64,000 nucleotides of DNA, from positions 1,488,001-1,552,000 of the forward strand of contig NZ_CP069128.1 of NCBI RefSeq assembly GCF_029637485.1. The letters are read 5' to 3'. Position numbers and translations under genes: made by a program. A model generated the notes under the pieces. That model searched no databases. It was not told the DNA's origin and saw only the letters and a list, made by a program, of their open reading frames with translations. This document shows positions 29,400 to 48,888 of the stretch, piece after piece. Origin of the DNA: Sphingomonas sp. LHG3406-1. GTDB taxonomy: Bacteria > Pseudomonadota > Alphaproteobacteria > Sphingomonadales > Sphingomonadaceae. Each line of letters begins with the position of its first letter. The first letter of the stretch is position 1.

Positions 29400-29474
29400 G
29401 GCCCCTTCGTCTAGTGGTTAGGACGCGGCCCTTTCACGGCTGAAACACGGGTTCGAGTCCCGTAGGGGTCACCA
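29400..29474 (+). tRNA. tRNA-Glu (anticodon TTC)
   Basis: A complete 75-base cloverleaf. Acceptor arm GGCCCCT pairs with AGGGGTC (one G-T), the D-arm holds TAGTGGTTAGGA, the anticodon loop is CTTTCAC (TTC), and the T-arm holds GGGTTCGAGTCCC. CCA is encoded. Its 3' end serves as the integration site of the island that begins here. Confidence 0.96.
29458..29474 (+). repeat. attL core (3' end of tRNA-Glu)
   Basis: TCCCGTAGGGGTCACCA, identical to 48,872-48,888. It covers the T-arm end, acceptor strand and CCA of the tRNA, so integration preserves a functional tRNA gene. Confidence 0.85.
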
Positions 29475-29528
29475 TCCAAGCCTAAGGCTTGGAAAGCGTT
29501 GGATTTACGGCCTCTTTACCCATCATGT

Positions 29529-29548
29529 GTACAGAACATGGGTACAGA
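29529..29548 (+). repeat. Left arm-type repeat pair GTACAGA
   Basis: GTACAGA at 29,529 and 29,542, start to start 13 bases, 55 bases inside the left core. The same motif, orientation and spacing recur near the right core. Likely arm-binding sites of the integrase; they precede the proposed integrase start at 29,568. Confidence 0.55.
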
Positions 29549-29567
29549 AATCGTGAAGAAGTCCAGC

Positions 29568-31391
29568 ATGGCCACCCCCTTCGCCGACCCCCGTACGGGG
29601 CAGCTCTACTTCCGGCGCGCCATCCCCGAGCCGCTTCGGGCCGCGTTCGGCGGCATGCGTGAGCGGAAGATTACGCTTGGCACCAAGAATCCCGTGATGG
29701 CCAAGGAGCCATTCGCCAGGCTGAATGCCGAGTTCGAGCGCGATCTCGCCGAAGCCAGGCACAAGCTCGCAGAGGGTACGCTGCTCCCCACACCCGGTGC
29801 AGTCGTTCGGCGCTGGTGCGAGAGCGCACCGACAAACGGCGGGCTGTCGGGTCAGCAGCGACTGTTGCTTACCCTCATGGAACTGGATGCGGGTGTCGGC
29901 GGACGCTTCTCGGCCAACCCCAAGCAAATCTACCCGCCCGCAATCACTGGACCGGCGGTCAACACTGATTGGAATGCCGTGCTTGACGAGCCGTCTCGGT
30001 TCGCGGGCATCGTCACTGACGTCTACGGCGGCGAGGCCGAGCAGGTCGGCACCAACTGGATTCGATCTCGCTGGCACGAGTCCGGGAACGCCTGGCATCC
30101 TCACCTTCTGCAAGCCGCAGAACGGCTCCGGCGCTTCGTTCCTGAAGCTCAGCGCTTCTCCACCGAAGAGATCGCTAAGGCCCTGCTCGCCGTCCTGGAT
30201 GAGCAGCGCCCGGCCGACGAAGACTTCAACCGTGCTCGGCTGGCCAAGCGGCGCCATCGCCCCAACCGGTCACGACTTCGCCCAAACATGCGGCTCAAGC
30301 AGCTGTTTGACGAGTGGGAAGACGGCAACAAACCCCGCCCGCAAACGGCGCTGGAGTATAGGGCCTCCGTTGATGACTTCATCGACTTTGCAGGAGATAT
30401 CCCGGTATCGGCGATCGACGCCGACTTGCTTTTCGACTATCGCGACGAAGCAGCGCGGCTGCCCAGCACGATGCCCCGTGCCGATCGTGCCCTCCCTTTT
30501 CGGGCTCGCGTGGAAAAGCACGGCGGCGGTACGCCTAAGTGTTCGCCGGCAACCCTGAAGAAGCGGATCGGCGCGCTTCAAGCGCTACTCACCTACGCCT
30601 TCCAGCAGCGCTGGACGGCGAGCAACAACGGCGTGGGCATCACCATCATTGGTTACTCAAAGACAAATAAGAACCGTCGCAGCTTGGAGGACCACGAACT
30701 CACGTTGCTGTTTGCTTGTCCCCTCTTTGTCGATCCGCGGTCGTGGAACTCACCGTCCCGGATCAGCGACGTCACCATCTTCTGGCTGTTCCTGATTGCT
30801 GCGACGACCGGGGCTCGGTTGGAGGAAGTCGGGCAGGTGGCGCTCGCCGACATCCGCCGTGACGGTGACATCGTCTATCTCGACATCAGCGACTATGCGC
30901 TTCTGGAGGACGGAGAAGAGAAGAGCGTCAAGAACCCGGAGTCGAGGCGTCTCGTGCCCGTCCATGCCAACTTGGTTGCGATCGGCTTCCTCGCCTATTG
31001 CAATGCGCTTGCTGCAGCCGGGCACCGGCAGCTTTTCCCCGACCTAAAGGAGAACAAGATCGGAAAGAAGACCAAGGAAGCCAGCCAACGCATCAACCGC
31101 ATCGTGGACCGATACGTGTCCAAGGATAAGCGGCTCGTCTTCTACTCGCTCCGGCATACCTTCAAGGCCAAGGGTAACGAGGCCAATCTGACATCCAAGA
31201 CCCTCAACCAGATCTGCGGGCATGCGCTGGTCAACGTCGGCGAGCAGTATGGCTCCGAGCCTCGCATCCGGAACTTGTACAGGGAACTGCATCGCATCGA
31301 CTTCTCGTGCATCGATTGGGAGGCGATCAGGCAGGCGGTGTCCGGCTTGAAGTGGAGTGAGGTCCTGCGCCGCGGCAAGCCGGATGACTGA
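29568..31391 (+). CDS. Tyrosine-type site-specific integrase
   Basis: A large recombinase (607 residues) that would insert and excise the island. The N-terminus (GQLYFRRAIPEPLRAAFGG, TLGTKN) is the DUF6538-like DNA-binding start seen in long alphaproteobacterial integrases, and a core-binding SAM-like segment lies around residues 240-300. The catalytic domain has Arg in TGARLEEVGQ (about 416), SLRHTFK with the H and R residues (about 528) and the Tyr in VNVGEQYG (about 560). Start is uncertain (29,538 or 29,568); a GAAGAAG stretch favours 29,568. It converges with the methyltransferase gene. Confidence 0.92.
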   Translation: MATPFADPRTGQLYFRRAIPEPLRAAFGGMRERKITLGTKNPVMAKEPFARLNAEFERDLAEARHKLAEGTLLPTPGAVVRRWCESAPTNGGLSGQQRLLLTLMELDAGVGGRFSANPKQIYPPAITGPAVNTDWNAVLDEPSRFAGIVTDVYGGEAEQVGTNWIRSRWHESGNAWHPHLLQAAERLRRFVPEAQRFSTEEIAKALLAVLDEQRPADEDFNRARLAKRRHRPNRSRLRPNMRLKQLFDEWEDGNKPRPQTALEYRASVDDFIDFAGDIPVSAIDADLLFDYRDEAARLPSTMPRADRALPFRARVEKHGGGTPKCSPATLKKRIGALQALLTYAFQQRWTASNNGVGITIIGYSKTNKNRRSLEDHELTLLFACPLFVDPRSWNSPSRISDVTIFWLFLIAATTGARLEEVGQVALADIRRDGDIVYLDISDYALLEDGEEKSVKNPESRRLVPVHANLVAIGFLAYCNALAAAGHRQLFPDLKENKIGKKTKEASQRINRIVDRYVSKDKRLVFYSLRHTFKAKGNEANLTSKTLNQICGHALVNVGEQYGSEPRIRNLYRELHRIDFSCIDWEAIRQAVSGLKWSEVLRRGKPDD

Positions 31392-31397
31392 TGATTT

Positions 31398-32399
31398 TCA
31401 GTCGGTCGTCGAGCCGTCTTTGTACTCGCGGTAGAGACGGACGATCTCCGACTTCGCTAGGCTCGGGTTGCCGGCGACATTGCCGACAACACTGGCGAAA
31501 TCGAGCTGCTTCATGATCGTCTCGACCTCTCCCTTGATGAAATAGTGAGATGACGGACTCATGTTGAGGTCGTGATGCACACGCCCGGCATTGGCGCCAA
31601 CGCGCTGGATAGCGAAGTCGGCTAGCTCCGGCTTGGTAAACTTGAAGTCGGGGTGAGTGGTCTCCGTGCGCTGCAGCTCCCGCTTGTAAGGGCGGCGTTC
31701 CCAGATTTGGAAGACAGCCGGCACGTGGAATGGCTCGTACCGGAAGAGGAAAGCGTTCTCAGGCACCGGCACCTCGCAAATGCGATGGAATGCATTGTCG
31801 AGACGGTTCTCAATCGAAGCTTTCCGAACGGACGCTGGCATAATGAATGCGATGACATCCCCTGCGCGAGCGGCGCGATTGAAGAACGCAACAGCCATGC
31901 TGGCATTCTTACCGAACGGAGGGTTTCCGATGATGGCTGTTGGCCAATCGCGCGGGAGATCGACAGCGAGGAAGTCAGCACGTTGAACGTCTGGATATCT
32001 CGGATCTAGATCGTAACCAAGGCTACCCGGCGGCAGCAGACTGAAGAACGCCCCGGTCCCAGCGCTTGGTTCGACCATGCGAAAGTGACGCGGATCGAAG
32101 TGCTCGCGGAAGACCTCATAAAACTCCCGAGCGACGTGCGGAGCCGTGTAGTACTGGTCAAGCTCAATTGCGGGCCGGCAATCATCGTCCGCCGCCACTC
32201 CAAGAGACGGGCCGATGACGGAGACCACTTCATCAAGCAGCTGTGAAGCATTTGGCGCGTCTTCAGCTCGCCTGTAATAATCGAACGACAACTGCTTGGC
32301 TTGGCAAGCATCGGGGCGACTGGCGGTTGCAGCTTTTGATCTGCTGCGCCCGAGCGGAGGATTAAAGGGCTTCATGGATCGTCTTGAAGGACGGCCCAT
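31398..32399 (-). CDS. Class I SAM-dependent (adenine-type) methyltransferase
   Basis: A 333-residue protein with SAM-binding motif I VEPSAGTGAFF and catalytic motif IV GNPPFGKN, the NPPF form used by N6-adenine methyltransferases. A preceding DQYYTAPHVAREFYEVF helix is typical of DNA methylases. No target recognition domain is obvious and no restriction endonuclease is adjacent, so it looks like an orphan or phage-type enzyme. ATG 32399 lacks a clear ribosome site; ATG 32375 is an alternative. It is divergent from the XRE-like gene 36 bases away, so they likely share control. Confidence 0.82.
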   Translation of the reverse strand: MGRPSRRSMKPFNPPLGRSRSKAATASRPDACQAKQLSFDYYRRAEDAPNASQLLDEVVSVIGPSLGVAADDDCRPAIELDQYYTAPHVAREFYEVFREHFDPRHFRMVEPSAGTGAFFSLLPPGSLGYDLDPRYPDVQRADFLAVDLPRDWPTAIIGNPPFGKNASMAVAFFNRAARAGDVIAFIMPASVRKASIENRLDNAFHRICEVPVPENAFLFRYEPFHVPAVFQIWERRPYKRELQRTETTHPDFKFTKPELADFAIQRVGANAGRVHHDLNMSPSSHYFIKGEVETIMKQLDFASVVGNVAGNPSLAKSEIVRLYREYKDGSTTD

Positions 32400-32435
32400 T
32401 CCACGATATGCAACAACCCGACAATTTAGTTGAGA

Positions 32436-32957: not shown

Positions 32958-33363
32958 GCGATGGTCGCGCCGGGTGTGTTGAGGCCGTTTGCCCTTCCAC
33001 TGAGACGCAAAAGCACAGGAGGCGGGCTGACCTCCTAGCGGCATCAAGCCAGCCGGCCATGCGCGAAGCGCACACGCGTCAAACGTCCGCATAGACCCAC
33101 TCTCAGACATTCACGGAAGAATTGCAGCGGCCGGACAGCGGACGTTGGTTTGTTCATCGATTTCCATCTCGGCATCGATGTCGGAGATGTTCTAGCCTTG
33201 GCTGAAGCGATTGACATTCAAGCAGGACGGCGGGCCGGTTGCCGGTCCACCGTCACCCCGCTTCAACGTCGGCATGTGCCGGGTTCAAAGCAGCCTGTCG
33301 GGATCCCGATCGCGAGCATTTTGCGACCTGCAAAAGCCACCGCAGATTTGCGGTAGTCGAGGA
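32958..33363. other. Gene-free stretch between XRE-like gene and mscL
   Basis: About 400 bases with several short open frames but none with recognisable protein character or ribosome site. The only structure seen is a small hairpin at the right end, downstream of the leftward mscL gene. Confidence 0.55.
33332..33354 (-). terminator. Possible terminator of mscL
   Basis: On the minus strand ACCGCA pairs with TGCGGT across a 4-base loop, followed by GGCTTTTG. It lies 10 bases beyond the mscL stop. The stem is only six pairs, so confidence is modest. Confidence 0.4.
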
Positions 33364-33786
33364 TCAAGGCCGACGACGGAGCTCATCGCGGATTTCTGCA
33401 AGTAGATCTACTTCGGTCGGACCTGCGACCTCATCTACCCGCTTCATTACTTTGTTGGCCGAGCGGACAAGCATGAAGATGATAAAGGCGAGAATTAAGA
33501 AGTTGATCAGAACCGTGATAAACTGACCCCATCCCAGCACGGCTACGCCGGCCGCTTTCAAATCTGTGTAGCTGCTTGCATTGCCCTTGAAGCCTTCCGG
33601 AATAGGTCCGAGCACGGCGAAGTAGTTAGCGAAATCGAGGCCGCCGAAGACTGACCCTACCAAGGGCATTATGATGTCGTCCGTCAGGCTGGCAACGATG
33701 GTTGCGAAGGCCGCACCGATGATCACGGCGACAGCCAGATCGAGCACATTGCCCTTTGCGATGAAGGTCTTGAACTCTGAAAACAT
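33364..33786 (-). CDS. mscL: Large-conductance mechanosensitive channel MscL
   Basis: Inner-membrane channel that opens under high membrane tension and releases solutes during hypo-osmotic shock. The 140-residue protein is of normal length, with the N-terminal amphipathic segment FKTFIAKGNVLDLAVAVIIGAAF, pore helix, periplasmic loop, TM2 (FITVLINFLILAFIIFMLV) and the cytosolic C-terminal helix with EVDLLAEIRDELR. An AGGAGGAACG ribosome site precedes ATG 33786. Its presence on an island is notable because it is often a core gene. Confidence 0.95.
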   Translation of the reverse strand: MFSEFKTFIAKGNVLDLAVAVIIGAAFATIVASLTDDIIMPLVGSVFGGLDFANYFAVLGPIPEGFKGNASSYTDLKAAGVAVLGWGQFITVLINFLILAFIIFMLVRSANKVMKRVDEVAGPTEVDLLAEIRDELRRRP

Positions 33787-33859
33787 GTCGTTCCTCCTGA
33801 CGTGAAATCACGAGACCGATATCTTTCGGTGTTTCGTGCCGTTTCTCGGGTGCGATCGA

Positions 33860-34345
33860 TCAAGTCTCAAGGATGCTCTTCAATTGACCTATTCGCTCAC
33901 AAAGGGCGCGCATTTGCGCATTCATGTCACCCAGCTGATCGAGGGTAAACGCGGTCCGTGACGCTGGGAGAGAGGTGATGCCGCCATCCGAGGCATAGGC
34001 CACCCATGTTCCCTCTGCGGCTCTTTCCACTCCGACAAAGTGATGGAAGATCAGGTTGCGGGTCCGGGAGAACTGTTCTGCCAAATTGCCAATTTCAGCC
34101 ACCTCGCGAGCTGCTGTTGGATTACGCCGCGACTTGAGACTGACGAGGGCGCGCCACTCTGCCAAGCGCTCGTTGAAAGAGCCTCGAACTCGCGCGGTTG
34201 TCATTCCGCTGTCTCCATCGGAAAGACGCAGCCTCTTGATGTCGTCGATGACGGCGCGCTCCAGCATGCTCCAACTCAGCAGGAGGTAGCCGAGCGCTGT
34301 CATGAGAGTGTCGACATCGGAATAGCCATCGATCACCTTGTTCAC
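33860..34345 (-). CDS. Hypothetical protein, about 161 aa
   Basis: A soluble, mostly helical protein. GTG 34345 is preferred because AAAGGATCAGGGTGC precedes it; ATG 34369 is the alternative. LLLSWSMLERAVIDDIKRLR, EIGNLAEQFSRTRNLIFHHFVGVE and a C-terminal helical MNAQMRALCERIGQLKSIL are the main features. The conserved-looking RNxxxHH stretch recalls HEPN-like helical proteins, but this is weak. No neighbour suggests a role. Confidence 0.55.
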   Translation of the reverse strand: MNKVIDGYSDVDTLMTALGYLLLSWSMLERAVIDDIKRLRLSDGDSGMTTARVRGSFNERLAEWRALVSLKSRRNPTAAREVAEIGNLAEQFSRTRNLIFHHFVGVERAAEGTWVAYASDGGITSLPASRTAFTLDQLGDMNAQMRALCERIGQLKSILET

Positions 34346-34492
34346 GCACCCTGATCCTTTGACAGGCATCGACCGAATACATCAGCCTAAAGGAGAGATC
34401 AGCCCTCCTTCGTCTGAGCGGGTCGCGCCGCCGTCGCTGCCGTTGACTTTAATCTATGTCAGGCGTTCAATCACCGCACAAGGAGACCAATC

Positions 34493-34692
34493 ATGGCCGT
34501 AGCCAAGACTCTTGAAATTTTTCGAGCTCCACGGAAAGCATCGAGGCAGCTGTAAGCGAGGGCAGCGCCAAGGCTGGCGAGACCATTCACGACATCCAAG
34601 AGGCGTGGGTGTAGAGCACCAAGGCGCTGGTACGCGACATGAAGGTTGTCGAATGGCGAGTGACCCTGAAGGTGACCTTCATCGTCAAGTAG
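34493..34692 (+). pseudogene. Dodecin gene with frameshift and nonsense mutation
   Basis: AGGAGA precedes ATG 34493, and the frame begins MAVAKTLEI as in dodecins, small dodecameric flavin-binding proteins. Two extra T bases in the TTTTT run near 34,518 shift the frame. Thereafter the other frame reads SSTESIEAAVSEGSAKAGET, DIQEAWV, an in-frame TAG at 34,612, then STKALVRDMKVVEWRVTLKV and TFIVK before the final stop. Undoing the 2-base insertion and reading the TAG as Gln would restore a 66-residue dodecin. Confidence 0.85.
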
Positions 34693-34774
34693 CAGCTGCT
34701 GCCACCCGCCTGTTGCACTCACCAGCCAATGCTGGGGCAGGCATTTGCCCAAATGCCCACGAGGAGAGACTTAA

Positions 34775-35368
34775 ATGGACGTCAATCAGATGCTGCAGCA
34801 GACTGGTGCTGTGGAGGCACTATCGCGTGAACTGGGCGTCGACGCTTCAACGGCTCAGGCAGGAGCGGCCGCACTCTTGCCTTCAATCCTATCCGGATTC
34901 CAGAATCCTGTCGCAGCAAGCGCTCCTCCGGCTGCCTCCCAAGCGCTCTCTGCCTCGAGTGGGTTAGGTGGGCTGCTCGGGATGATTGGCGGATTGGGTG
35001 GCGGCGCGCTCCTCGACAACGTTACTTCTTCAGGACCCACCGAAGTCAACAAGGGCAATGAGATTCTTGGACAGCTGTTCGGATCAAAGGACGGAAGTCG
35101 TGCGGTAGCCGCAAGCGCTGCGGCTCAGTCAGGCGTCGAGCCGTCTCTGTTGAAAAAGATGCTTCCAATCCTCGCAATGGTCGCTGCCGGCTATTTGATG
35201 AAGCAAGCAAGCCAAGGAGGTGGAATTGGAGGAGCATTGGGGAGTGTTTTCGGAGGGCAATCGAGTGCCGCTGGAACGGAAGGATCTTCGCAGCAAACAC
35301 AGGGCAGCGGGTCGGCCGACATTCTTGGCGATCTGATTGGCGCCGCCGGCAAATTCCTGGGACGGTAG
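34775..35368 (+). CDS. DUF937 domain-containing (YidB-like) protein
   Basis: A 197-residue protein of the DUF937 family. The N-terminal helical part (MDVNQMLQQTGAVEALSRELGVDASTA, AAALLPSILSGF) is followed by glycine-rich linkers, a second helical region with PSLLKKMLPILAMVAAGYLMKQ, another Gly/Ser-rich stretch and a C-terminal DILGDLIGAAGKFLGR. Low-complexity linkers explain its length. GAGGAGAGAC precedes the ATG. The function is unknown; the DUF3597 gene follows by 24 bases in the same direction. Confidence 0.87.
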   Translation: MDVNQMLQQTGAVEALSRELGVDASTAQAGAAALLPSILSGFQNPVAASAPPAASQALSASSGLGGLLGMIGGLGGGALLDNVTSSGPTEVNKGNEILGQLFGSKDGSRAVAASAAAQSGVEPSLLKKMLPILAMVAAGYLMKQASQGGGIGGALGSVFGGQSSAAGTEGSSQQTQGSGSADILGDLIGAAGKFLGR

Positions 35369-35392
35369 TCAAGCAATTAGGAGACGCATGCG

Positions 35393-35809
35393 ATGAGCAT
35401 TTTCGGCAAAATCAAAGACGCCATTTTCGGCAAGAAAGCCGTACCGGCTCCGGTCCCGACTGGCAGCGGAACAGTTCAGCCGTCTCCGGGAGCTGACTCG
35501 CCGACATCATCTCCCATGGGTCAGGCCAACCAACCTCAAGCGCAAAGCCAGGTTGACGTTGAGCAGGTCCTTACCAGCCTAGTTTCGTCGAAAGGTAATC
35601 CAGATCTGAATTGGCGGACGTCGATCGTAGACTTGTTGAAGCTGCTCGACATGGATTCAAGCCTTGGAAACCGGAAGGAACTCGCAGCCGAGCTCGGGTA
35701 CAAGGGAGAGAAGGACGGCAGCGCAGAGATGAACCTGTGGCTTCACAAGGAAGTGATGCGGCAGTTGGCCGCTCATGGCGGGAAGGTACCCGCCAATCTC
35801 ACTGACTAA
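35393..35809 (+). CDS. DUF3597 domain-containing protein
   Basis: A 138-residue protein. The start MSIFGKIKDAIFGKKA is characteristic and is followed by a Pro/Ser/Gln-rich linker (about residues 18-52) and a C-terminal domain: VDVEQVLTSLVSSKGNPDLNWRTSIVDLLKLLDMDSSL, then AAELGYKGEKDGSAEMNLWLHKEVMRQL. The fold resembles a small LysM-free helical domain, with no known activity. AGGAGACGC precedes ATG 35393. It sits between the DUF937 and PilZ genes in a run of co-directional stress-type genes. Confidence 0.87.
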   Translation: MSIFGKIKDAIFGKKAVPAPVPTGSGTVQPSPGADSPTSSPMGQANQPQAQSQVDVEQVLTSLVSSKGNPDLNWRTSIVDLLKLLDMDSSLGNRKELAAELGYKGEKDGSAEMNLWLHKEVMRQLAAHGGKVPANLTD

Positions 35810-35826
35810 TCAGCGGCGTCGGCACG

Positions 35827-36084
35827 GTGACAGAAGAGGAGAACGCGACCGATTGGGTGAAGCGAGCAGATCGCGACCCGGTATCAGTCGCTGCCTCTCT
35901 GGTACTCGAAGACCGGAGGTTGCCAGTTCTGATCACAAACATTTCGGAAGATGGCTGCCGAATCACGTGTGAGGAGACTTTGCCAATTGGATCCCATGTC
36001 ACGATCAGGGTGAATCTGGTAAACATTGCTGCAACTATTAGGTGGTCCCTTGCCGGCAGCGCCGGCCTACGTTTCGCTAAGTGA
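35827..36084 (+). CDS. PilZ domain-containing protein
   Basis: An 85-residue single-domain protein from GTG 35827. The segment RDPVSVAASLVLEDRRLPVLITNISEDGCRI aligns with the PilZ pattern (RxxxR ... DxSxxG), and the barrel continues to AATIRWSLAGSAGLRF. The first Arg motif is imperfect (KRADRDPV), so c-di-GMP binding is uncertain. It ends the DUF937-DUF3597 series with an 18-base gap, so co-transcription is likely. Confidence 0.78.
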   Translation: MTEEENATDWVKRADRDPVSVAASLVLEDRRLPVLITNISEDGCRITCEETLPIGSHVTIRVNLVNIAATIRWSLAGSAGLRFAK

Positions 36085-36282: not shown

Positions 36283-36906
36283 CTAGCAGCCGCTTGAGAT
36301 ATAGGCGCTGAAGGATCCCACTCCGACCGTGGTAAGGGCTTTGAGTTGCTCTCGAGAAGCGCCGGCGCGAGCCTGCAATGAAATGCCCTGCACCAACGCG
36401 AACAAGAAGCTTGTAAGCCCATCACTGTCAGCGTTGGCCGGCAGGTCACCTTCTTGTCGTGCCTTATCAAAGCGTTCGACAAGCTTGGTGCGGACTACCT
36501 TGCCGCGCCGCTGAACATCGTCACGCACACCCTGAGTATCCTCGCCGCACGACGTGGACGCAATCACACCCATGCAGCCACGCGACTCGCCTTCGCCAGC
36601 GGCGGTCTCGTACGCACCCCGCAAGAGTCGCTCGGCAACCTGGGCTGCGGTTGGCTGCTCGATCGCCTGTTCGATGTAGCGCAGCTTATCGCGCTGGTAG
36701 AGGTCGAGCGCTTCGTGGAACAGCGCCTCCTTGTTGCCGAACGCGGCATACAGGCTCGGCCGCGTGATCCCCATTGCAGCTGTGAGGTCGCTCAAGGACG
36801 TCGCATCATAACCCTTGCTCCAGAAAACTTGGAGAGCGGCCGCCAGTGCCTTGTCCGTGCAGAACTCCCGTGGGCGGCCACGCGCCTGTGGCACCGACGC
36901 GCTCAT
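36283..36906 (-). CDS. TetR/AcrR family transcriptional regulator (downstream copy)
   Basis: A 207-residue repressor-type protein. The N-terminal HTH (about residues 12-57) is in RGRPREFCTDKALAAALQVF and YDATSLSDLTAAMGITRPSLYAAFGNKEALF; the ligand domain includes ESRGCMGVIASTSCGED. The ATG overlaps the stop of the upstream tetR gene by four bases (ATGA), so the two are co-translated. With the neighbouring efflux operon it may sense a pump substrate. Confidence 0.9.
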   Translation of the reverse strand: MSASVPQARGRPREFCTDKALAAALQVFWSKGYDATSLSDLTAAMGITRPSLYAAFGNKEALFHEALDLYQRDKLRYIEQAIEQPTAAQVAERLLRGAYETAAGEGESRGCMGVIASTSCGEDTQGVRDDVQRRGKVVRTKLVERFDKARQEGDLPANADSDGLTSFLFALVQGISLQARAGASREQLKALTTVGVGSFSAYISSGC

Positions 36907-37511: not shown

Positions 37512-37552
37512 TGCTTCTCCAGAGGCTGTCCATCGCGGCAACACAAGCCGAA

Positions 37553-37592
37553 TGTCAACAGCTATTGACTTTGTAAGTCTACAAGTGTTGAC
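37553..37592. promoter_or_regulatory. Probable TetR operator between tetR and RND pump genes
   Basis: Nested inverted repeats: GTCAACA (37,553-37,559) against TGTTGAC (37,586-37,592), and within them GACTT-TGT-AAGTC (37,567-37,579) with almost the same centre. A further palindrome TTGTA-agtc-TACAA overlaps at 37,571-37,584. TTGAC elements of -35 type lie on both strands, so a repressor bound here could block both directions. Confidence 0.6.
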
Positions 37593-37663
37593 GGCGCGTG
37601 AATGCCGATGTGAGTCGGATCTGTCGACCGCTTTGGGTATCAAGTTCTCGGAAAGTCAGTTCG

Positions 37664-38863: not shown

Positions 38864-38877
38864 AGGACCTCGCTCCA

Positions 38878-41800: not shown

Positions 41801-42090
41801 CCGCTGCCCGTCAGCGCCTTCGGCCGATCCTGATGACCAGCTTCGCCTTCATCTTCGGCGTGATCCCGCTGGCGATCGCCGTCGGGCCGGGCGCGGAGAT
41901 GCGCCAGTCGCTGGGCACCGCCGTCAGCTTCGGCATGCTCGGAGTCACCATCTTCGGCCTGATCTTCACGCCGGTCTTCTACGTCGTCATGCGCGGTCTT
42001 CCCGATCGCCTGCGCAAGGTTCGCACGCACGTCATGCGCCGCAAAGACGACACCCACCCACCGCTCGCCGCGGATGGAGCATCTTCATGA
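38878..42090 (+). CDS. Efflux RND permease, hydrophobe/amphiphile (HAE-1) family
   Basis: A 1070-residue AcrB/MexB-type pump. The start NISRFFIERPIFASVLAVFITLIGLFAYPQLPLSQYPEIAPP is diagnostic of HAE-1. The proton relay Asp pair is in LAVGIVVDDAIVVVEAV (about residue 407), and GLVVLVALAAKNAILIVEFAKQ lies in the second bundle. Length is normal, so multidrug export is the expected role. GTG 38878 is the start. The gene overlaps the outer-membrane gene by four bases; all three components are in one operon. Confidence 0.96.
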   Translation: MNISRFFIERPIFASVLAVFITLIGLFAYPQLPLSQYPEIAPPTISIAAAYPGASSETIAETVAAPLEQEINGVENMLYMSSSSTGGAAQITVTFKPGTDLDAAQVLVQNRVALAEPRLPDQVRQVGVTVSKQSTGFLMIVALTSTDPNLDVDYLGNYANTNLRDRLLRLEGVGGVQVFGGGNYSMRVWIDPSRAAARNLTAGEIVTALRTQNVQVAGGALGQPPYGGGNPSFQLPVQVQGRLSDPEQFADVIIKTDPSGGITRVRDVARVELGSQDYGIRGSFTGKNGVALAVIQQPGSNALNAAELVLNEVETASKDFPPGIVYSIPYNPTEYVSASVTAVQETLLEAVILVIIVVMVFLQTWRAAVIPILAIPIALVGTFAVQLALGYSINSLSLFALVLAVGIVVDDAIVVVEAVEKHIREGLSPREAAHRTMQEVSGALIAIGLVLTAVFVPTAFVSGIPGIFYRQFAVTIAAASLISLVVSLTLSPALAALLLKPHVEMHAGGGFKWTRPLRLAATKFNAGFDWLSDRYGRLTSQLVRKTGLMLVIYAGFLALTGVQLASTPTGFIPEQDQGVLIGVVQLPPGASLDRTTEVLNRAYDIVRKQQGVVDAATFAGLDGASFSQASNAGTMFIRLADWGDRGGKGLSANELSQALTGALAGQIQEANVFIIAPPAVPGLGTGNGFTMMIQDRSGAGYQALEGATMAMMGAAAQQPKVTQVFSTFNTGSPRIDAEIDRDRAQLLGVQPSQVYEALGTYLGSTYVNDFNMLGRTFRVTAQAEPAARDDLADIGQLQVRSAGGEMVPLASVATLRNDSGPERVVRYNMFPAVELQGQAAAGVSSGDALTTMEQLAASTLPHGMSFEWTGLAFQEKAAGSSSTLIFLLAVLFVFLVLAAQYEALTLPLAVILIVPMCILAALFGVMLRGMDNNILTQVGLVVLVALAAKNAILIVEFAKQAEEEVGASPLEAAVTAARQRLRPILMTSFAFIFGVIPLAIAVGPGAEMRQSLGTAVSFGMLGVTIFGLIFTPVFYVVMRGLPDRLRKVRTHVMRRKDDTHPPLAADGASS

Positions 42091-43481
42091 AGCGCATTCT
42101 ACTCGCTCTAAGCAGCGCATTTGCCCTGAGCGGTTGCATGACCGTAGGTCCCGACTATCGCTCGCCCGCGCCCGACGTGCAGGCGAAGGCGCAGCGGCCG
42201 TTCGTCAGCGCCGCGCCCTCGCCCTTATTCACCGGCAACGAGCCGCCGGGCCGCTGGTGGAGCCTGTTCAACGATCCCGCACTGGATGGACTGGTGCGGC
42301 AGGCGCTGACCGCCAATACCGATCTGCGCGTCGCTGCCGCCAACCTTGCCCGGGCCCGCGCCGTGTTGCGCGAGACCCGCTCGGCGCGGCTACCGTCCAC
42401 GACCGTGTCGGGCAGCGCAACCTACGCCCACCAGCCAGATCCCCTGCCCTCGGACACCACCTTCGATGTCGGGCTCGACGTCGGCTACCAGGTCGACCTC
42501 TTCGGCCGGCTGCGTCGCGCCACCGAAGCCAGCCGCGCCGACGTCGGAGCGGTGCAGGCCGCATTCGATCTCGCGCGCGTGTCGGTCGCAGCAGAAACCG
42601 CGCGCGCCTATGCCGATGCCTGCAGCGCCGGCCGCCAGCTTGAGGTCGCCCGCGAAACGGTGCGACTGCAAGAGCAGACCTTCGACCTCACCCGCCGGCT
42701 GGTCGCTGGTGGGCGCGGCACCGCGCTTGACACCGGCCAGGCCGGTTCACTGCTTGAGCAGACCCGTGCCACCGTTCCGACCATCGAAGCACAGCTGCAG
42801 ACCGCGCTATTCCGCTTGGCCGTCCTGACCGGTCGCCCGCCGGCCGAGGTTTCGCCCCAAGCCGCAGCCTGCACTACGCCGCCGGCTCTTAGCCGCCCGA
42901 TCCCGGTCGGCAATGGCGCAACCCTGATCGCCAGGCGCCCTGACGTTCGCCAGGCCGAACGCGAACTCGCCGCCGCCACCGCTCGGATCGGCGTCGCCAC
43001 CGCCGACCTTTACCCCGACATCCAGCTTGGCCTGTCTGTGGGATCGACGGCTACCTCGGTCGGAGACCTAGCGTCCTCGCGTGGCTTGCGTATCGGACTC
43101 GGTCCGCTGATCAGCTGGACCTTCCCCAACACCGGCGTCGCCCGCGCACGCATTGCCCAGGCCGAGGCGTCTGCTCAAGCTTCGCTCGCCCGGTTCGACG
43201 GCACCTGGCTCAGCGCCCTGGAGGAGACCGAAAGCGCGCTGACCCGCTACGCCCGCGAGCAGGAGCGTCTCCAGGCGCTTCGCCGGGCGCGCGCAAACAG
43301 TGCCGAAGCTGCGCGCATCGCCCGCCTTCGCTATCGTGCTGGCCGCGAGGCCTTCCAGATCGTCCTTGAAGCCGAGCGCTCGCTCGCTCAGACGGACAGC
43401 GCACTTGCCCAGTCGGAAGCCCAGCTTTCGACCAATCTCGTCAGCCTCTTCCTGGCGCTCGGTGGCGGCTGGCAGGTCTGA
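42087..43481 (+). CDS. Outer-membrane efflux channel lipoprotein (NodT/OprM family)
   Basis: A 464-residue TolC-like trimer subunit completing the pump. The lipoprotein signal ALSSAFALSGC (Cys about residue 17) precedes MTVGPDYRSPAPDV, a typical family start. Two long coiled-coil repeats, NTDLRVAAANLARARAVLRE and EREL-type segment QAERELAAATARIGVATADLYP, mark the duplicated OEP fold. The ATG overlaps the permease stop (ATGA). No gene follows in the same direction for 560 bases. Confidence 0.95.
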   Translation: MKRILLALSSAFALSGCMTVGPDYRSPAPDVQAKAQRPFVSAAPSPLFTGNEPPGRWWSLFNDPALDGLVRQALTANTDLRVAAANLARARAVLRETRSARLPSTTVSGSATYAHQPDPLPSDTTFDVGLDVGYQVDLFGRLRRATEASRADVGAVQAAFDLARVSVAAETARAYADACSAGRQLEVARETVRLQEQTFDLTRRLVAGGRGTALDTGQAGSLLEQTRATVPTIEAQLQTALFRLAVLTGRPPAEVSPQAAACTTPPALSRPIPVGNGATLIARRPDVRQAERELAAATARIGVATADLYPDIQLGLSVGSTATSVGDLASSRGLRIGLGPLISWTFPNTGVARARIAQAEASAQASLARFDGTWLSALEETESALTRYAREQERLQALRRARANSAEAARIARLRYRAGREAFQIVLEAERSLAQTDSALAQSEAQLSTNLVSLFLALGGGWQV

Positions 43482-44042: not shown

Positions 44043-45074
44043 ATAGGTACACCAAAGCCTGACGCCGAGCTGATCGCCGCGCGCAATGCGCTGGTTGAGA
44101 GCGACGCCAAATTTCAGACGCTGGCTGATGCCTTGCCGCATATGGTCTGGTCGACTTTGCCCGACGGGTACCACGACTATTACAATGCGCAGTGGTATGA
44201 GTTTACTGGGATCACTCCAGGTTCTACTGATGGCGACAAATGGAATGGCATGTTCCACCCCGATGACCAGCCGCGCGCTTGGGAGCGATGGCGGAAGAGC
44301 CTTGCGTCGGGTGAGCTTTACGAGATTGAGTATCGCCTGCGGCACCGGAGCGGAGCTTACCGCTGGACGCTTGGCCGGGCCCTGCCGGTCCGCACTCCGG
44401 ACGGCCAGATCGTTCGGTGGATTGGGACCTGCACCGACATCCACGATGCCAAGGAGCAGGCGGCCAGGAATGAAATTCTTAGTCGCGAGCTGAGCCACCG
44501 CATCAAGAATATCTTCGCCGTGATCAGCGGCTTGGTTGGGATGTCCGCCCGGCAGGATCCCGGCGCAAGTGGCTTTGCAAAAACGCTTCAGGCCCGGATC
44601 GCTGCCCTTGGCCGCGCGCACGAGTTCGTCCGCCCGCACAGCGAAGAATCCGCTCCCCTTGTCCCAACGGCCTCCTTGCACGGAATCTTGCAGGAAATCT
44701 TGTCCCCGTATCCAGCCATGGACGAGGGCCGGATTACGATGAAAGGCATCGATGTGCGCGTGGACGATCGCGGCGCTACCCCACTGGCGCTCCTGGTTCA
44801 TGAGCTCGCAACCAACGCCGTCAAGTATGGCTCTCTTTCTGTGCCTGTGGGGCAGGTCCGCATCGAAACCCGGGTGGACGACGACGTGCTGGGCTTATGC
44901 TGGCAAGAAAGCGGCGGCCCAGCCATTGATGGTCCGCCCACGCGTCAAGGATTCGGCTCGCGCTTGAGCGAGCTCAGCATCGTTCAGCAGCTCGGCGGCA
45001 ACTTGCAGCGGCACTGGAACGCGGATGGATTGCTGGTCGAGGTAGAGGTCGAGCTACAAAGTCTCGTTCGCTGA
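44043..45074 (+). CDS. PAS-domain HWE/HisKA_2-type sensor histidine kinase, no canonical start
   Basis: A roughly 343-residue cytoplasmic kinase. A PAS domain runs from about residue 20 (QTLADALPHMVWSTLPDGYHDYYN, GITPGSTDGDKWNGMFHPDD) to CTDIHDAKEQ, followed by the phospho-acceptor box LSRELSHRIKNIFAVISGL of this class and an HATPase with LLVHELATNAVKYGSL and RQGFGSRL. The GAGGAGG ribosome site at about 44,030 points to ATA 44043 as start, with a stop upstream and no ATG/GTG/TTG until TTG 44133, which lies inside the PAS domain. Probably an ATG-to-ATA change; expression is doubtful. It converges with a response regulator gene. Confidence 0.78.
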   Translation: MGTPKPDAELIAARNALVESDAKFQTLADALPHMVWSTLPDGYHDYYNAQWYEFTGITPGSTDGDKWNGMFHPDDQPRAWERWRKSLASGELYEIEYRLRHRSGAYRWTLGRALPVRTPDGQIVRWIGTCTDIHDAKEQAARNEILSRELSHRIKNIFAVISGLVGMSARQDPGASGFAKTLQARIAALGRAHEFVRPHSEESAPLVPTASLHGILQEILSPYPAMDEGRITMKGIDVRVDDRGATPLALLVHELATNAVKYGSLSVPVGQVRIETRVDDDVLGLCWQESGGPAIDGPPTRQGFGSRLSELSIVQQLGGNLQRHWNADGLLVEVEVELQSLVR

Positions 45075-45473
45075 TCAGCCAAAAAGCTTCATGCTCGGGG
45101 GTGGCGCGACCTGGGGGCCACGTCTCGTGCCGAGCGCATACTCGACCGCTGCCTTGACGATCTTCTCATCGGTCGGCTTCGTAATCACGCCAATGGCGCC
45201 AGCAGCACCGTCATTCAACAAGCCCGGATTGGCGGTCACGAACACCACGGCAACCCCCGCCGCGCTTAGCTGAGCACCAATCTGCGGGCCGGTGAACCCA
45301 TCCCGCAGGTTCAGGTCGACCAAGGCCAGATCGAGAGGCTGGTCAATGTACTGCCGAGCGGAATTCAGATCGGGCACGATGCCGACCGGGTCGTAGCCCA
45401 GTTCGGACAACGTCTCCTCAAGGTTCATGGCCACGAGGATCTCGTCTTCAACAATAAGGATTTTTGCTGTCAT
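45075..45473 (-). CDS. Single-domain response regulator
   Basis: A 132-residue stand-alone receiver domain. The acidic pocket is in ILIVEDEILVAMN, the phospho-acceptor Asp in LALVDLNLRDG, the Thr/Ser switch in VVFVTANPG and the Lys in GVITKPTDEK. Such proteins usually pass phosphate on, as with HWE-kinase partners. ATG 45473 is chosen since the receiver fold starts at once. Upstream on the same strand lies a truncated kinase gene that was probably its original partner. Confidence 0.9.
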   Translation of the reverse strand: MTAKILIVEDEILVAMNLEETLSELGYDPVGIVPDLNSARQYIDQPLDLALVDLNLRDGFTGPQIGAQLSAAGVAVVFVTANPGLLNDGAAGAIGVITKPTDEKIVKAAVEYALGTRRGPQVAPPPSMKLFG

Positions 45474-45573
45474 CGCACTAGATCCTAGGCTCCGTCGAGT
45501 AACCGACAAAACGGGGATTGGTTCAACAGTGCCCCTCACCGGTTGACGGATCTAGAAGGAGGTGTTGCTGAGA

Positions 45574-45834
45574 TCACTCAGAATCAATGAACGTCACGGT
45601 TGTTTGCGTCCCCTTAGGTGAGCTGCTTTGCTCCAGCACCCCCGCAATCTGTCGAGTCAGCGAGCGGAGCAGGCGGGCGCCGGTGCCGGTGCCGGGTTCA
45701 GCGCCCTCGGCCGCACCACCGCCGTCGTCGGTGACCCGAAGAATGGCCCTGCCACCTCCTGCACCGGCCAGCAGCTCGACGGTTACACTTCCTCGAGCTC
45801 GCCCCTGAAAAGCGTACTTCAGGCTACTCGTTCC
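45574..45834 (-). pseudogene. Remnant of a histidine kinase (HATPase domain end)
   Basis: About 87 codons encode only the C-terminal ATP-binding part of an HWE/HisKA_2 kinase: SSLKYAFQGRARGSVTVELL (N box end), ILRVTDDGGGAAEG (G1) and GTGTGARLLRSLTRQIAGVLE (G2), ending KGTQTTVTFIDSE. No sensor, H box or start is present; the frame runs into the 3' end of the META gene on the same strand, at about 45,840. It ends 100 bases before the response regulator start. Confidence 0.72.
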
Positions 45835-46477
45835 ACGCCCGCTCCGCTGTTGGGCATGCCTTCGAGGTCCTCCTACCAGTCTCGAAGCGAACGCGGTCCT
45901 CACCCAGCTGCTGCCAGCCGCCCTCAACCGTGCCGCAGGCCGTATCGAGCCGGAAGAGGTCGCCCTCCACGATCAGCGCTGGCACCTGCCGGCCTATTCG
46001 CCACTCGCCGCTGACCGCGCGAAAGGTGCAGCGCGTAGCGATCAGCGCTCTCGGAGCCTCGCCAGAACCGCGCACCGCCCTGCCGGCTCGCCCAAGCTCC
46101 AGACGGTGCTTAGCCGTCGCGAGCGTCACCCGGTCGGCGCCATTGAAGTGGATCGTCGGCCCGCTCGCCAGCATGCCGTGGACTGCCGCATCTTGCCCGC
46201 TCAGCGGCTCTGCGCAGCCCATCTGATTGGCCATGGCGAAGTCACCGTACCAGCGCCCATCATGCCTCAGCCCGATACCCCCAAAATCGTTGCAGCCGGC
46301 ATTGCCGCCATAGTTCGATGGCCCGAACACCAAGTGTGGCTGCTGGTCGTAGGCGGTCTTTGCCGGTGCCCGTCCATCAATGGCTATGATGATCCAGCGG
46401 CCTTCCAACGACGTCCGCTCCGTAAGCTTCACCGGCGCAGGTGCGGCAGAGCAGGTAGGCAAACGGAAGATACGCAT
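45824..46477 (-). CDS. META (HslJ-like) domain protein
   Basis: About 217 residues. The META domain is seen in SLEGRWIIIAIDGRAPAKTA, HLVFGPSNYGGNAGCNDFGG and FAMANQMGCAEPLSG, with GCNDFGG the best-conserved motif of the family; a second related segment follows. HslJ-type proteins are envelope proteins linked to heat or antibiotic stress. No good ribosome site precedes ATG 46477 and the short N-terminus (FRLPTC) looks like a damaged lipoprotein signal, so the 5' end may be decayed. The last residues overlap the kinase remnant, implying a junction there. Confidence 0.68.
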   Translation of the reverse strand: MRIFRLPTCSAAPAPVKLTERTSLEGRWIIIAIDGRAPAKTAYDQQPHLVFGPSNYGGNAGCNDFGGIGLRHDGRWYGDFAMANQMGCAEPLSGQDAAVHGMLASGPTIHFNGADRVTLATAKHRLELGRAGRAVRGSGEAPRALIATRCTFRAVSGEWRIGRQVPALIVEGDLFRLDTACGTVEGGWQQLGEDRVRFETGRRTSKACPTAERAWNE

Positions 46478-46596
46478 GCAATCACCAACGCCAAAAAGTT
46501 CGAATAGCAGCTTAATGGCAGCTAGTCTTAGCGAGGTCTGGCATGCGCGCGGGCATGCGTCAGCCGTAGGTGGACAGTTGTAACCGAGGTCCCACC

Positions 46597-46650
46597 AATG
46601 TCCGCTTTCTGCTTGTGCGAACCCGAAAGCTGCCTTTCCGCTTCCCACCA
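46597..46650 (+). repeat. ATGTCCGC-type dispersed repeat, copy with AACCCGAAAGC tail
   Basis: AATGTCCGCTTTC followed by AACCCGAAAGC and TTCCGCTTCCCACCA. The second half matches 43,577-43,607 at 27 of 31 bases, and the first half recurs at 46,905 and 47,292. Confidence 0.6.
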
Positions 46651-46707
46651 AGCCAAGTCTCTTCGCTCGTTTTCTCCTCGGCTGCTGTTGGCCTGAGGAG
46701 ATGAAGC

Positions 46708-46788
46708 ATGGGACATGCAATCTACGATCCCGGTCAGGAAGACCGCCCTGTGTGGAATGTTGGCCGTAAGCTTGGTGCAAAGCTAGAG
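46708..46788 (+). pseudogene. Probable 5' remnant of a second integrase gene
   Basis: A GAGGAG ribosome site leads to ATG 46708 and an opening peptide that includes DRPVWNVGRKLGAK, resembling my recollection of the N-terminus of alphaproteobacterial phage-type integrases. After about 25 codons similarity ends, and the frame stops at TGA 46,808. An alternative frame beyond the break encodes one hydrophobic helix (FVAFLILSVAWVATTTFW). It could be a relic or a chimeric small gene. Confidence 0.4.
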
Positions 46789-46904
46789 CCATCTTCGTCG
46801 CCTTTCTGATCCTGTCAGTGGCGTGGGTGGCCACGACTACGTTTTGGGGAGTGCTTCGACTGTTGCATCCACCAGAACAAGCATGAGCAATAATGAACGT
46901 GCTC

Positions 46905-46932
46905 AATGTCCGCTTTCAACCCAAGGCGGAAA
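46905..46932 (+). repeat. ATGTCCGC-type dispersed repeat
   Basis: AATGTCCGCTTTCAACCCAA followed by GGCGGA, the same family as 46,597 and 47,292. Intergenic. Confidence 0.6.
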
Positions 46933-47290
46933 CTAGGAGGGCAGCGCCGCTTTCGACAACAGCCGCAAAGTTCTTCGCCGGGAAAATGGGTAAGCCCTTC
47001 CAAAGAGTCGCTTGTGCCTTGCGCCAGGCCCATGAGCCTACGGTGCCTCATCAACGTCCATCGGCCGATGCTGAGATCGATAGTCCGCAGGGTCGATCGG
47101 TTCACCGCGCTGTGTGACGACTGCGGATCGATTATAGAGCGCTCGGACGAGAGCCGATGCCGAAGGTCAGAGCCATTGGCGTCAACATGTGGCCACGCCG
47201 CAACAGCGGACCTCTCCTAGCTCAACTGGATAGATTGTCGGGCTCGAGTCCGAACGTTGAGGGTTCAGGTCCTCGGGACGGGCCAGTCCC

Positions 47291-47322: not shown

Positions 47323-47400
47323 GCTACTTAGCTGAACGAACGTCCCCTTATTGGTGCCGCCGCTGTTGATCAGAACGACCGCCACGGGCGCATAGAAGAC
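47314..47400 (+). repeat. Left copy of a diverged about 87-base duplication
   Basis: Resembles 48,603-48,689: CTTAGCTGAACGA is identical, and the following bases share TGCCGC, GAC(C)G and GGGCGCA blocks in the same order at roughly two-thirds identity. Intergenic in both places, flanking the 318-residue hypothetical gene. Confidence 0.5.
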
Positions 47401-47556
47401 GGTGGCAGTTCGGCCTTGCACCGGAAATCAGTTGCCTGATTCAAGAGGCGGAGGCTTGCAAGGGGCCACTCTCGCCTCCAAGGCCTTGACTCTCATCGGC
47501 GGACCTCAAGGCGGCGAGACAGCGTTGGGCAAGGATCAATCGCGCAATCGTCAGTT

Positions 47557-48513
47557 GTGAACCGCCGTTCGCCACCCCACCCGCGCCACTCGCGCCGTCT
47601 CGATCCGGCGCTGGCCCTGGCGCTGCTCGCCCTGCTAGTCGCGTTCGTGGCGGGGGTGCTGGCGATCTTCGAGATGCGGGGGGACCTCTTCCGCTGGCGG
47701 GAGGAGCGGCGGCCGCTGCCGGGGCCGCTGGGGATCGAGTTCGTCGCGCTGCCGGGCGGAACGGGGCCGTTCCTCACCATCCTTGCGGCGCCGGCGCGGG
47801 ACGTCCGGCCCTCGCCGGACCTGATTGGCGCCGGCGAGCGGCTGCTCCCCGAGGATGCGCCGGCAGTGGCGCCGGAGCTTGCAGACAAGCTCCGGCTGGT
47901 GGCCCGGCTGGAGCCGCCGCCGCCGGACACCCAGGAGCGGCTGGTGACCTTCGACGCGGAGGAGAGGCCGGCGCCGGTGCGGACCGGCCGGGTGATCCTT
48001 CGCGACGGCTGCCTTCGCGTGGGCATCAAGGACGAGCCGCTGGCGGTGCTTCCGGCGGGCACGCGGCTGGTGCGCGACCCGCAAGGGCATGTGCTGATGG
48101 TGATGGTGCAGAATTCACCCACCAACGCCCGAGTGGGCGAGGAAGCGATGTGGGTCGAGACGGGCGTGCGGCCGATCCCAAGCGCGGCGGCCGAGCGGAT
48201 GCGGCGGGCGTGCGGAGGCGGGAGGATCGCGCTCCTGAGCTTCGTCCAGAGCGTCAGCGCGGTGCGGGCTCAGAGCGACGCGCTGGCGGCGCGCAACGTC
48301 GACATTCATTACGGGCTAGGCTGGGAAGAGTCGCTGCGGCGGGTGGTGCGCTGCCGCGAGCGCTCGCCGGTTCCGATGGGGGCGAGCAACATGTGCGGGT
48401 CGACTCCGCCGAGCCCGGTCGCTGATCCCCGCGACTGCCCGGCGGGAACGAGCCTCAGCGGCGGACTGTGCCGGACTCCCGAGGGCCATGTGCGGCCGGT
48501 GCCAGCGATGTGA
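47557..48513 (+). CDS. Hypothetical membrane-anchored protein, 318 aa
   Basis: Begins with a basic cytoplasmic segment and one membrane helix (ALALALLALLVAFVAGVLAIF, about residues 18-38), then a periplasmic domain without recognised family. RTGRVILRDGCLRVGIKDEPLAVLPAGTRLVRDPQGHVLM is its best-defined part and hints at a beta-rich fold; the end has four cysteines (CRERSP, MCGST, DCPAG, LCRTPEG). Very GC-rich codon use resembles the flanking chromosome more than the rest of the island. GTG 47557 is assumed. It is flanked by the two copies of a degenerate repeat. Confidence 0.68.
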   Translation: MNRRSPPHPRHSRRLDPALALALLALLVAFVAGVLAIFEMRGDLFRWREERRPLPGPLGIEFVALPGGTGPFLTILAAPARDVRPSPDLIGAGERLLPEDAPAVAPELADKLRLVARLEPPPPDTQERLVTFDAEERPAPVRTGRVILRDGCLRVGIKDEPLAVLPAGTRLVRDPQGHVLMVMVQNSPTNARVGEEAMWVETGVRPIPSAAAERMRRACGGGRIALLSFVQSVSAVRAQSDALAARNVDIHYGLGWEESLRRVVRCRERSPVPMGASNMCGSTPPSPVADPRDCPAGTSLSGGLCRTPEGHVRPVPAM

Positions 48514-48602
48514 GGGGAGCGGTCGAAGTCCCCTCAGTCATCCGCTGCGCGGCTGACAGCTGGCCCAGGCGCCCAAGGGGAGCGGCGGGAGAGGATCGGT
48601 TC

Positions 48603-48689
48603 ACGACATATGCAACTTAGCTGAACGAGGTTCCGCTTACGGATGCCGCTGGCGCGACTCGGAATGACCGTGATGGGCGCAAAGCGGAC
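48603..48689 (+). repeat. Right copy of a diverged about 87-base duplication
   Basis: Counterpart of 47,314-47,400, with CTTAGCTGAACGA conserved and the same block order beyond it. Confidence 0.5.
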
Positions 48690-48789
48690 GCTTGAGAAAG
48701 GCGATCAATCGAGCCCGACACCCGGGGCTTGACCCCATGGAGACGAAGACTCATGATCTCCTTGGAAGCGACCGACAACCGGCTCGTGA

Positions 48790-48809
48790 GTACAGAAGGT
48801 GTGTACAGA
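48790..48809 (+). repeat. Right arm-type repeat pair GTACAGA
   Basis: GTACAGA at 48,790 and 48,803, again 13 bases apart and in the same orientation as the left pair, 63 bases inside the right core. Confidence 0.55.
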
Positions 48810-48871
48810 GGGCGTCCAGCTGCGCAAAGTAGATTGGCAGATTACCGCCATTCTCTCGTACTACGGACCCC

Positions 48872-48888
48872 TCCCGTAGGGGTCACCA
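48872..48888 (+). repeat. attR core
   Basis: TCCCGTAGGGGTCACCA, a 17-base copy of the tRNA-Glu 3' end. Bases before it (TACGGACCC) do not continue the tRNA, so this is the distal attachment site and not a second tRNA gene. Confidence 0.85.

What the first reader, a model, noticed from the sequence alone, without database searches (positions are those of the whole stretch)
29458..48888. A 19.4-kb integrative island at tRNA-Glu with identifiable att cores
TCCCGTAGGGGTCACCA occurs at the 3' end of tRNA-Glu and again at 48,872, with an intact tyrosine recombinase gene directly inside the left copy. Interior pseudogenes, gaps and degenerate repeats contrast with the compact flanks. Cargo combines an RND pump, methyltransferase, channel and signalling genes and lacks transfer functions. 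Targeting of tRNA 3' ends by tyrosine recombinases is well established; the boundaries here come from the sequence.
Basis: partly seen in the sequence, partly recalled or inferred. Interest (0 to 1): 0.75.

Follow-up and report, generated by a model that had tools for sequence, protein, structure and literature searches.

The report
A 19-kb tRNA-Glu genomic island
This is a real, self-delimiting 19.4-kb genomic island inserted at a tRNA-Glu gene; its two ends carry matching signals that look like the two halves of the integrase's attachment site, but as a kind of element it is ordinary.

Summary
TCCCGTAGGGGTCACCA occurs exactly twice (29458-29474, inside an intact tRNA-Glu(TTC), and 48872-48888), with an apparently intact tyrosine recombinase just inside the left copy. 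The right end has independent support: a phased pair of GTACAGA motifs (13-bp spacing) lies inside each core. A looser pattern (GTACARA pair) has 5 matches in 71 whole genomes of the genus: four beside tRNA-Glu, and this right end. In another genus one contig carries a single core with similar pairs on both sides, next to a distantly related integrase and without a tRNA: an attP-like layout.

Three corrections. (1) The right flank is not the ancestral neighbour: in relatives the tRNA leads to pgl and GSH-FDH, which here lie about 88-90 kb away; the 19.4 kb is the tRNA-proximal part of a larger variable zone. No 29474/48889 empty site was found. (2) The cargo is patchwork: the mscL block and the RND operon occur elsewhere in relatives at 80% and 85% DNA identity. 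(3) The integrase end is 99% identical to one at a different tRNA-Glu gene (CTC) in another species whose recJ is only 79% identical. No transfer genes or excisionase were found in the proteins scanned. New member of a known kind.

The parts
27580..29331 (+). recJ, conserved left neighbour of the tRNA
   Evidence: Pfam DHH, DHHA1, RecJ_OB; in 64 of 71 genus genomes one match of over 1 kb runs from recJ to the end of the tRNA (counted; in the other 7 it is split, cut short, or only in or near the tRNA)
29400..29474 (+). tRNA-Glu(TTC), intact; integration target
   Evidence: ARAGORN, Rfam tRNA
29458..29474 (+). left att core, 17 bp, 3' end of the tRNA
29529..29548 (+). left pair of GTACAGA motifs, 13-bp spacing, +55/+68 from the core; candidate integrase arm sites (P')
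   Evidence: same offsets in G020, G017 and (one mismatch) G003; GTACAAA form in Sphingomonas 3P27F8 and G442
29568..31391 (+). tyrosine recombinase (DUF6538 + Phage_integrase), 607 aa from the inner ATG
31398..32399 (-). methyltransferase of type II MTase kind, apparently full length; shared with G020 up to 32039
   Evidence: PADLOC MTase_II, 98% identical homolog of 325 aa
32430..32957 (+). XRE-type regulator with two HTH matches
33355..36079 (.). cargo block 1: mscL (33364-33786 -), ORF (33860-34369 -), DUF937 (34775-35368 +), DUF3597 (35393-35809 +), PilZ (35827-36084 +)
   Evidence: Pfam; 80% DNA identity to G011:C1:423831-426566 and G070:C1:1397997-1400718
36283..36906 (-). TetR-family regulator
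36903..37643 (-). second TetR-family regulator (my gene caller starts it at 37511)
37598..38863 (+). RND periplasmic adaptor (MexE-like)
38878..42090 (+). RND permease
   Evidence: Pfam ACR_tran, NF000282 above cut-off
42087..43481 (+). outer-membrane efflux protein (NodT type)
   Evidence: 36879-43481 is 85% identical to G070:C1:1840366-1846960
44133..45074 (+). PAS-HWE histidine kinase
45075..45539 (-). response regulator receiver
45574..45927 (-). short HATPase_c ORF, possibly a kinase fragment
45824..46906 (-). META-domain protein
47211..47286 (+). degenerate tRNA-Arg(TCG), preceded by about 300 bp of its usual upstream sequence
   Evidence: alignment with G070, G017 and G011 stretches in which ARAGORN calls tRNA-Arg(TCG); coordinates read from the alignment
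47557..48513 (+). 318-aa protein without a Pfam, NCBIfam, PADLOC or PHROG match
48790..48809 (+). right pair of GTACAGA motifs, 13-bp spacing, -82/-69 from the right core; candidate integrase arm sites (P)
48872..48888 (+). right att core, 17 bp

Best explanation
A 19.4-kb non-conjugative genomic island, integrated by its own DUF6538-type tyrosine recombinase into the 3' end of tRNA-Glu(TTC). Inferred mechanism: in the circular form the integrase binds a pair of 13-bp-phased arm sites on each side of a 17-bp core (attP: pair, core, pair, int) and exchanges strands with the identical core in the tRNA gene. Integration rebuilds the tRNA with the island's copy and leaves the displaced copy at 48872. 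Shown: cores, intact tRNA, conserved catalytic residues, phased pairs at both ends, a similar layout around one core in another genus, and a near-identical integrase end at another tRNA-Glu gene in another species. Inferred: that the pairs are integrase arm sites, that the island moved as one unit, and that it can still excise. It is the tRNA-proximal part of a variable zone that here separates tRNA-Glu from pgl by about 88 kb.
For: Cores unique. tRNA intact. Catalytic residues conserved. GTACAGA occurs 5 times on + and 0 on - in 132 kb, four of the five as two pairs at the island's ends. GTACARA-6N-GTACARA has 5 matches in 3 of 71 genus genomes, 0 for the reversed control: own left end, own right end, own tRNA-Glu(CTC), G017 TTC, G020 CTC. 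G442 has one core with GTACAG pairs at -81/-68 and GTACAA pairs at +67/+80, beside a distantly related integrase (29% over residues 243-587, 46% over 1-68), and no tRNA on the 109,759-bp contig. tRNA-Glu lies beside 5 of 5 integrase loci of at least 60% identity that have sequence upstream. Own 29399-32039 is 99% identical to G020 while recJ is 79%. tRNA-to-GSH-FDH distance spans 1.3 to 89.6 kb in 47 of 71 genomes.
Against: No empty site with these exact flanks was found (list cut). No excisionase was recognised in the proteins scanned; of the small ORFs listed only one (46906-47220) was scanned. The motif was noticed in this window first and then tested elsewhere; the upstream pair in G442 reads GTACAGC and was seen by eye, so it fits only a looser pattern (which has 2 places in the window and 2 in the G442 contig). 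A second integrated island with pairs at both ends was not found: G020 shows no right pair and no second core within 98 kb, G017 no right core in 38.9 kb, and the fetched 3P27F8 and Parvibaculum stretches reach only about 10 kb. In the family sample a similar pattern (4 matches in 397 genomes, 3 of them own; the sample holds 11 of this genus, not G017 or G020) is rarer outside the own genome than its reversed control (1 against 4), so by itself it predicts nothing there. Box II histidine is Tyr526, as in 5 of the 15 other aligned sequences.
Confidence: 0.92

Rival explanations
1. The 17-bp repeat at 48872 is a chance or unrelated copy; the true island is larger, perhaps up to pgl near 117 kb in window coordinates.
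For: Relatives G028 and G020 place pgl next to the tRNA, so all DNA up to about 117 kb is extra relative to them; 48889-92877 has only paralogue-level matches (44% protein identity or less) in the G031, G011, G070 and G017 intervals.
Against: Only two cores occur in 132 kb; the phased motif pair sits 82 bp inside the 48872 core and was found nowhere to the right of it; 48889-92877 has near-host G+C, 66.4%; the stretch 92878-113299 is a gene cluster in the same order in G031.
Confidence: 0.05
2. The island is real but fossil: it inserted this way once, and excision is now lost.
For: No excisionase recognised in the proteins scanned; degenerate tRNA-Arg copy and a possible kinase fragment inside; partial integrase genes beside tRNA-Glu occur in several genomes (G017 residues 1-509, G003 residues 6-156, own CTC site fused to a peptidase).
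Against: Integrase open and conserved, both cores exact, both motif pairs present; 99% identity with G020 suggests recent movement of the integrase end.
Confidence: 0.4
3. The GTACAGA pairs are operators for an integrase or excision regulator rather than integrase arm sites.
For: The left pair lies in the 5' region of the integrase gene; an XRE regulator is encoded nearby.
Against: The same phased pair sits at the far right end, and similar pairs flank the single core in G442 on both sides, which suits arm sites better.
Confidence: 0.15

Closest known systems
tRNA-integrated genomic islands with a tyrosine integrase (e.g. Bordetella petrii islands, PMC2717098; islands with a shared excision/integration module, PMC6035254; listing and start of abstract seen; details recalled)
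   Same: integrase just inside a tRNA 3' end, direct repeats at both ends, varied cargo
   Different: here each end carries a 13-bp-phased GTACAGA pair; excision untested; I did not compare the integrase families
Lambda/P4-type attP with core and arm sites (recalled; the KplE1 prophage paper PMC2951348 seen as listing and start of abstract)
   Same: one core flanked by arm-like pairs on both sides, integrase gene next to one arm (G442)
   Different: no phage structural genes found; binding not shown
Composite island at one tRNA (Shewanella CGI48 at tRNA-Trp, PMC8978831; listing and start of abstract seen)
   Same: several accessory segments at one tRNA
   Different: only one delimited unit is evident here; the rest of the zone has no recognised ends

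Membership tests
tRNA-targeting tyrosine-recombinase genomic island | direct repeat of a tRNA 3' end at both boundaries | tested here: met
tRNA-targeting tyrosine-recombinase genomic island | intact tyrosine integrase next to one end | tested here: met
tRNA-targeting tyrosine-recombinase genomic island | relatives with the same site empty | tested here: inconclusive
   tRNA joined to pgl in G028 and G020; no 29474/48889 junction found (list cut)
tRNA-targeting tyrosine-recombinase genomic island | same integrase at the same kind of site elsewhere | tested here: met
   5 of 5 loci of at least 60% identity with sequence upstream, own included; weaker hits not examined
tRNA-targeting tyrosine-recombinase genomic island | excision to a circle | not testable with these tools
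   needs PCR or reads
Integrative and conjugative element | relaxase, coupling protein and type IV secretion genes | tested here: not met
   none among the 18 island proteins scanned with Pfam
Prophage or phage satellite | phage structural, packaging or replication genes | tested here: not met
   PHROGs: 10 island ORFs scanned, none of these; integrase, methyltransferase and regulator hits, plus one weak peptidase match (E 7e-4) to the DUF3597 protein

The most novel reading that the evidence does not exclude
An undescribed family of Sphingomonadaceae islands built on a portable end module (integrase with or without a methyltransferase, flanked by 13-bp-phased arm pairs) that uses the shared 3' end of two tRNA-Glu isoacceptor genes (TTC and CTC) as interchangeable sites and collects cargo that in relatives also occurs near tRNA-Ser and tRNA-Arg genes, so that tRNA loci of one genus exchange island material.
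Probability: 0.35. Interest if true: 0.5.

Novelty: new member of a known kind. Interest (0 to 1): 0.35.

Why it matters
The paired end motifs let the right end of this island be called by a signal independent of the core repeat, and they give a concrete attP for bench work on a DUF6538-type integrase family; one search found no paper in the held library that uses that name. The locus is also a clear example of a tRNA-proximal interval varying from 1.3 to 89.6 kb within one genus (47 of 71 genomes measured).

Tried and rejected
Hairpin just inside the left core as a signature: rejected, because several non-integrase sites also fold there. Empty site with the own flanks in a relative: none found (list cut). 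Right end of the G020 island by core or motif pair: none within 98 kb. RNA family other than the tRNA at 27000-52000: none at E 0.1. Plasmid or phage relatives of the integrase: 33 plasmid and 7 phage records, all below 60% identity. Papers: nothing for Sphingomonas + genomic island + tRNA-Glu + integrase, DUF6538, or sphingomonad + genomic island + tRNA + tyrosine recombinase; no paper was opened. A defence role for the cargo was considered: of 10 ORFs only the methyltransferase and the XRE regulator had PADLOC matches.

My notebook (entry) took the G070:C1:89429 match for the META gene; searches show that it is the tRNA-Arg unit. The entry says recJ-tRNA-Glu is conserved in all; the count is 64 of 71.

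Distances were copied by hand and cover 47 of 71 genomes; the other 24 were left out because the tRNA and GSH-FDH lay on different contigs or far apart or in another orientation, the gene was missing, or recJ with its tRNA was split or not found. The match lists were cut by the tool, and searches list the best 120 only.
Full report
Check of the observation. The 17-mer TCCCGTAGGGGTCACCA is exact at 29458-29474 and 48872-48888 and nowhere else in the window with up to 3 mismatches (0.10 expected), nor in 131,999 bp of this chromosome from the window start. ARAGORN gives an intact tRNA-Glu(TTC) at 29400-29474. Beyond 17 bp the two copies diverge on both sides. The ORF 29499-31391 (inner ATG 29568) has DUF6538 and Phage_integrase domains; R417, K452/K455, R529, H552 and Y561 are invariant in 16 of 16 aligned sequences (their role as catalytic residues is recalled). 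The box II position is Tyr526 here and in 5 of the other 15.

Are the ends real? GTACAGA occurs 5 times on the + strand and never on the - strand in 132 kb; four of the five form two pairs with 13-bp spacing, at 29529/29542 and 48790/48803, just inside the two cores (window chance test). The pattern GTACARA-6N-GTACARA has 5 matches in 3 of 71 whole genomes of the genus, with 0 for the reversed control: own left end, own right end, own tRNA-Glu(CTC) site, G017 tRNA-Glu(TTC), G020 tRNA-Glu(CTC) (tRNAs). G003 has a one-mismatch variant at the same offset. In a sample of 397 family genomes, 11 of them of this genus and without G017 and G020, a similar pattern has 4 matches, three own and one in G442, against 4 control matches in 3 genomes. 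So it is no probe on its own, but the G442 match is beside a distantly related integrase. There, one core is flanked by GTACAG pairs at -81/-68 and GTACAA pairs at +67/+80, and no tRNA or second core lies on the 109,759-bp contig. The upstream pair reads GTACAGC and I saw it by eye; a looser pattern that covers it (GTACAR twice, 13 bp apart) has 2 places in the window and 2 in that contig, both strands searched. The own right end has its pair at -82/-69. Apart from the motifs the two stretches are unrelated (30 of 110 identical; 3267 of 10000 shuffles reach that), so the matching layout is not simple homology. I read it as P arm, core, P' arm, int. Whether G442 holds a free circle, a plasmid or a tandem junction is not known.

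Same integrase, same target. Of 6 loci of at least 60% identity, the 5 with sequence upstream all lie next to tRNA-Glu: own (TTC), G020 (CTC), G017 (TTC), G003 (TTC), Sphingomonas sp. 3P27F8 (CTC). A Parvibaculum MAG contig starts at the integrase, so its target is unseen; the weaker hits were not examined. G017 is probably Sphingomonas kaistensis (its contig length equals that of the source of P0012). Own 29399-32039 (tRNA, integrase, most of the methyltransferase) is 99% identical to G020, although recJ is 79% identical. In G020 the methyltransferase lacks its N-terminal part. An 83% integrase homolog and a 79% methyltransferase homolog come from contigs of the same length, 35,526 bp, which suggests that the two genes travel together.

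The flanks. recJ followed by tRNA-Glu is conserved: in 64 of 71 genomes one match of over 1 kb runs to the end of the tRNA (counted). To the right, many relatives have pgl, S-formylglutathione hydrolase and GSH-FDH (enzyme names from my reading of the sequences). G028 and G020 join the tRNA to pgl within about 100 bp. In the own genome pgl is at about 117101 in window coordinates and GSH-FDH at 119069. The tRNA to GSH-FDH distance in 47 of 71 genomes runs from 1.3 to 89.6 kb, median 6.2 kb, the own genome being the largest (copied by hand). Own 92878-113299 is a gene cluster in the same order in G031 (44-86% protein identity), by its gene content probably polysaccharide-related; 48889-92877 has only paralogue-level matches (44% protein identity or less) in the G031, G011, G070 and G017 intervals. 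G031 has a serine recombinase near the tRNA and G070 a 12.4-kb segment absent from G011.

The cargo. Own 33355-36079 (mscL, DUF937, DUF3597, PilZ) is 80% identical to blocks in G011 and G070; own 36879-43481 (TetR and RND operon) is 85% identical to a block in G070. In G070 the RND block ends about 0.1 kb from a tRNA-Ser; in G011 the mscL block is about 6 kb from a tRNA-Ser; G070's mscL stretch shows no tRNA in 20 kb. No second mscL match was listed in the own genome. Own 46904-47322 holds a degenerate tRNA-Arg(TCG) with its usual upstream sequence; the unit matches three places in G070 and one each in G017 and G011, ARAGORN calls tRNA-Arg(TCG) in the one stretch fetched from each, and a match to the tRNA part alone lies at G000:C1:1060380. 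No conjugation gene was found among the 18 island proteins scanned and no phage structural gene among 10 ORFs. So a good part of the island is material that occurs elsewhere in the same genus.

Mechanism. Shown: cores, intact tRNA, conserved integrase, matching pairs at both ends. Inferred from the lambda-type paradigm (recalled): integrase bridges arm pairs and core, and exchange within the 17 bp rebuilds the tRNA. Whether it still excises is open.

Verdict. A genuine tRNA-Glu island with well-supported ends; ordinary in kind, useful for its clean attP-like ends and for the variable tRNA-Glu locus around it.

Noticed in passing
L091:8163-10328 (own genome, tRNA-Glu(CTC) site, G000:C1:788162-790327): A 721-aa ORF joins a DUF6538 integrase-type N-terminus, with its GTACAAA pair beside tRNA-Glu(CTC), in one frame to a subtilase-type region that matches PADLOC IetS models.
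   Followed up: partly
window 46904-47322: A 380-bp unit of a small ORF plus tRNA-Arg(TCG) recurs in G070 (3 matches), G017 and G011; the own copy's tRNA is degenerate.
   Followed up: partly
window 46601-46783: A stretch of about 120-190 bp with 85-92% matches at single places in at least 8 genomes of the genus; no Rfam family at E 0.1.
   Followed up: no
window 43557-43607, 46600-46650, 47304-47401, 48593-48690: Short dispersed repeats, some of them also in stretches fetched from relatives and from the own tRNA-Glu(CTC) region.
   Followed up: no
L078 (G031), 190-1755 right of tRNA-Glu: A serine recombinase (Resolvase + Recombinase) next to the same tRNA-Glu(TTC) in G031, so other recombinase types may use this locus.
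   Followed up: partly
L074 and L073 (G011, G070), right of tRNA-Glu(TTC): G070 has a 12.4-kb segment right after the tRNA that G011 lacks, and an altered 3' half of the tRNA, consistent with another insertion; no second core found.
   Followed up: partly
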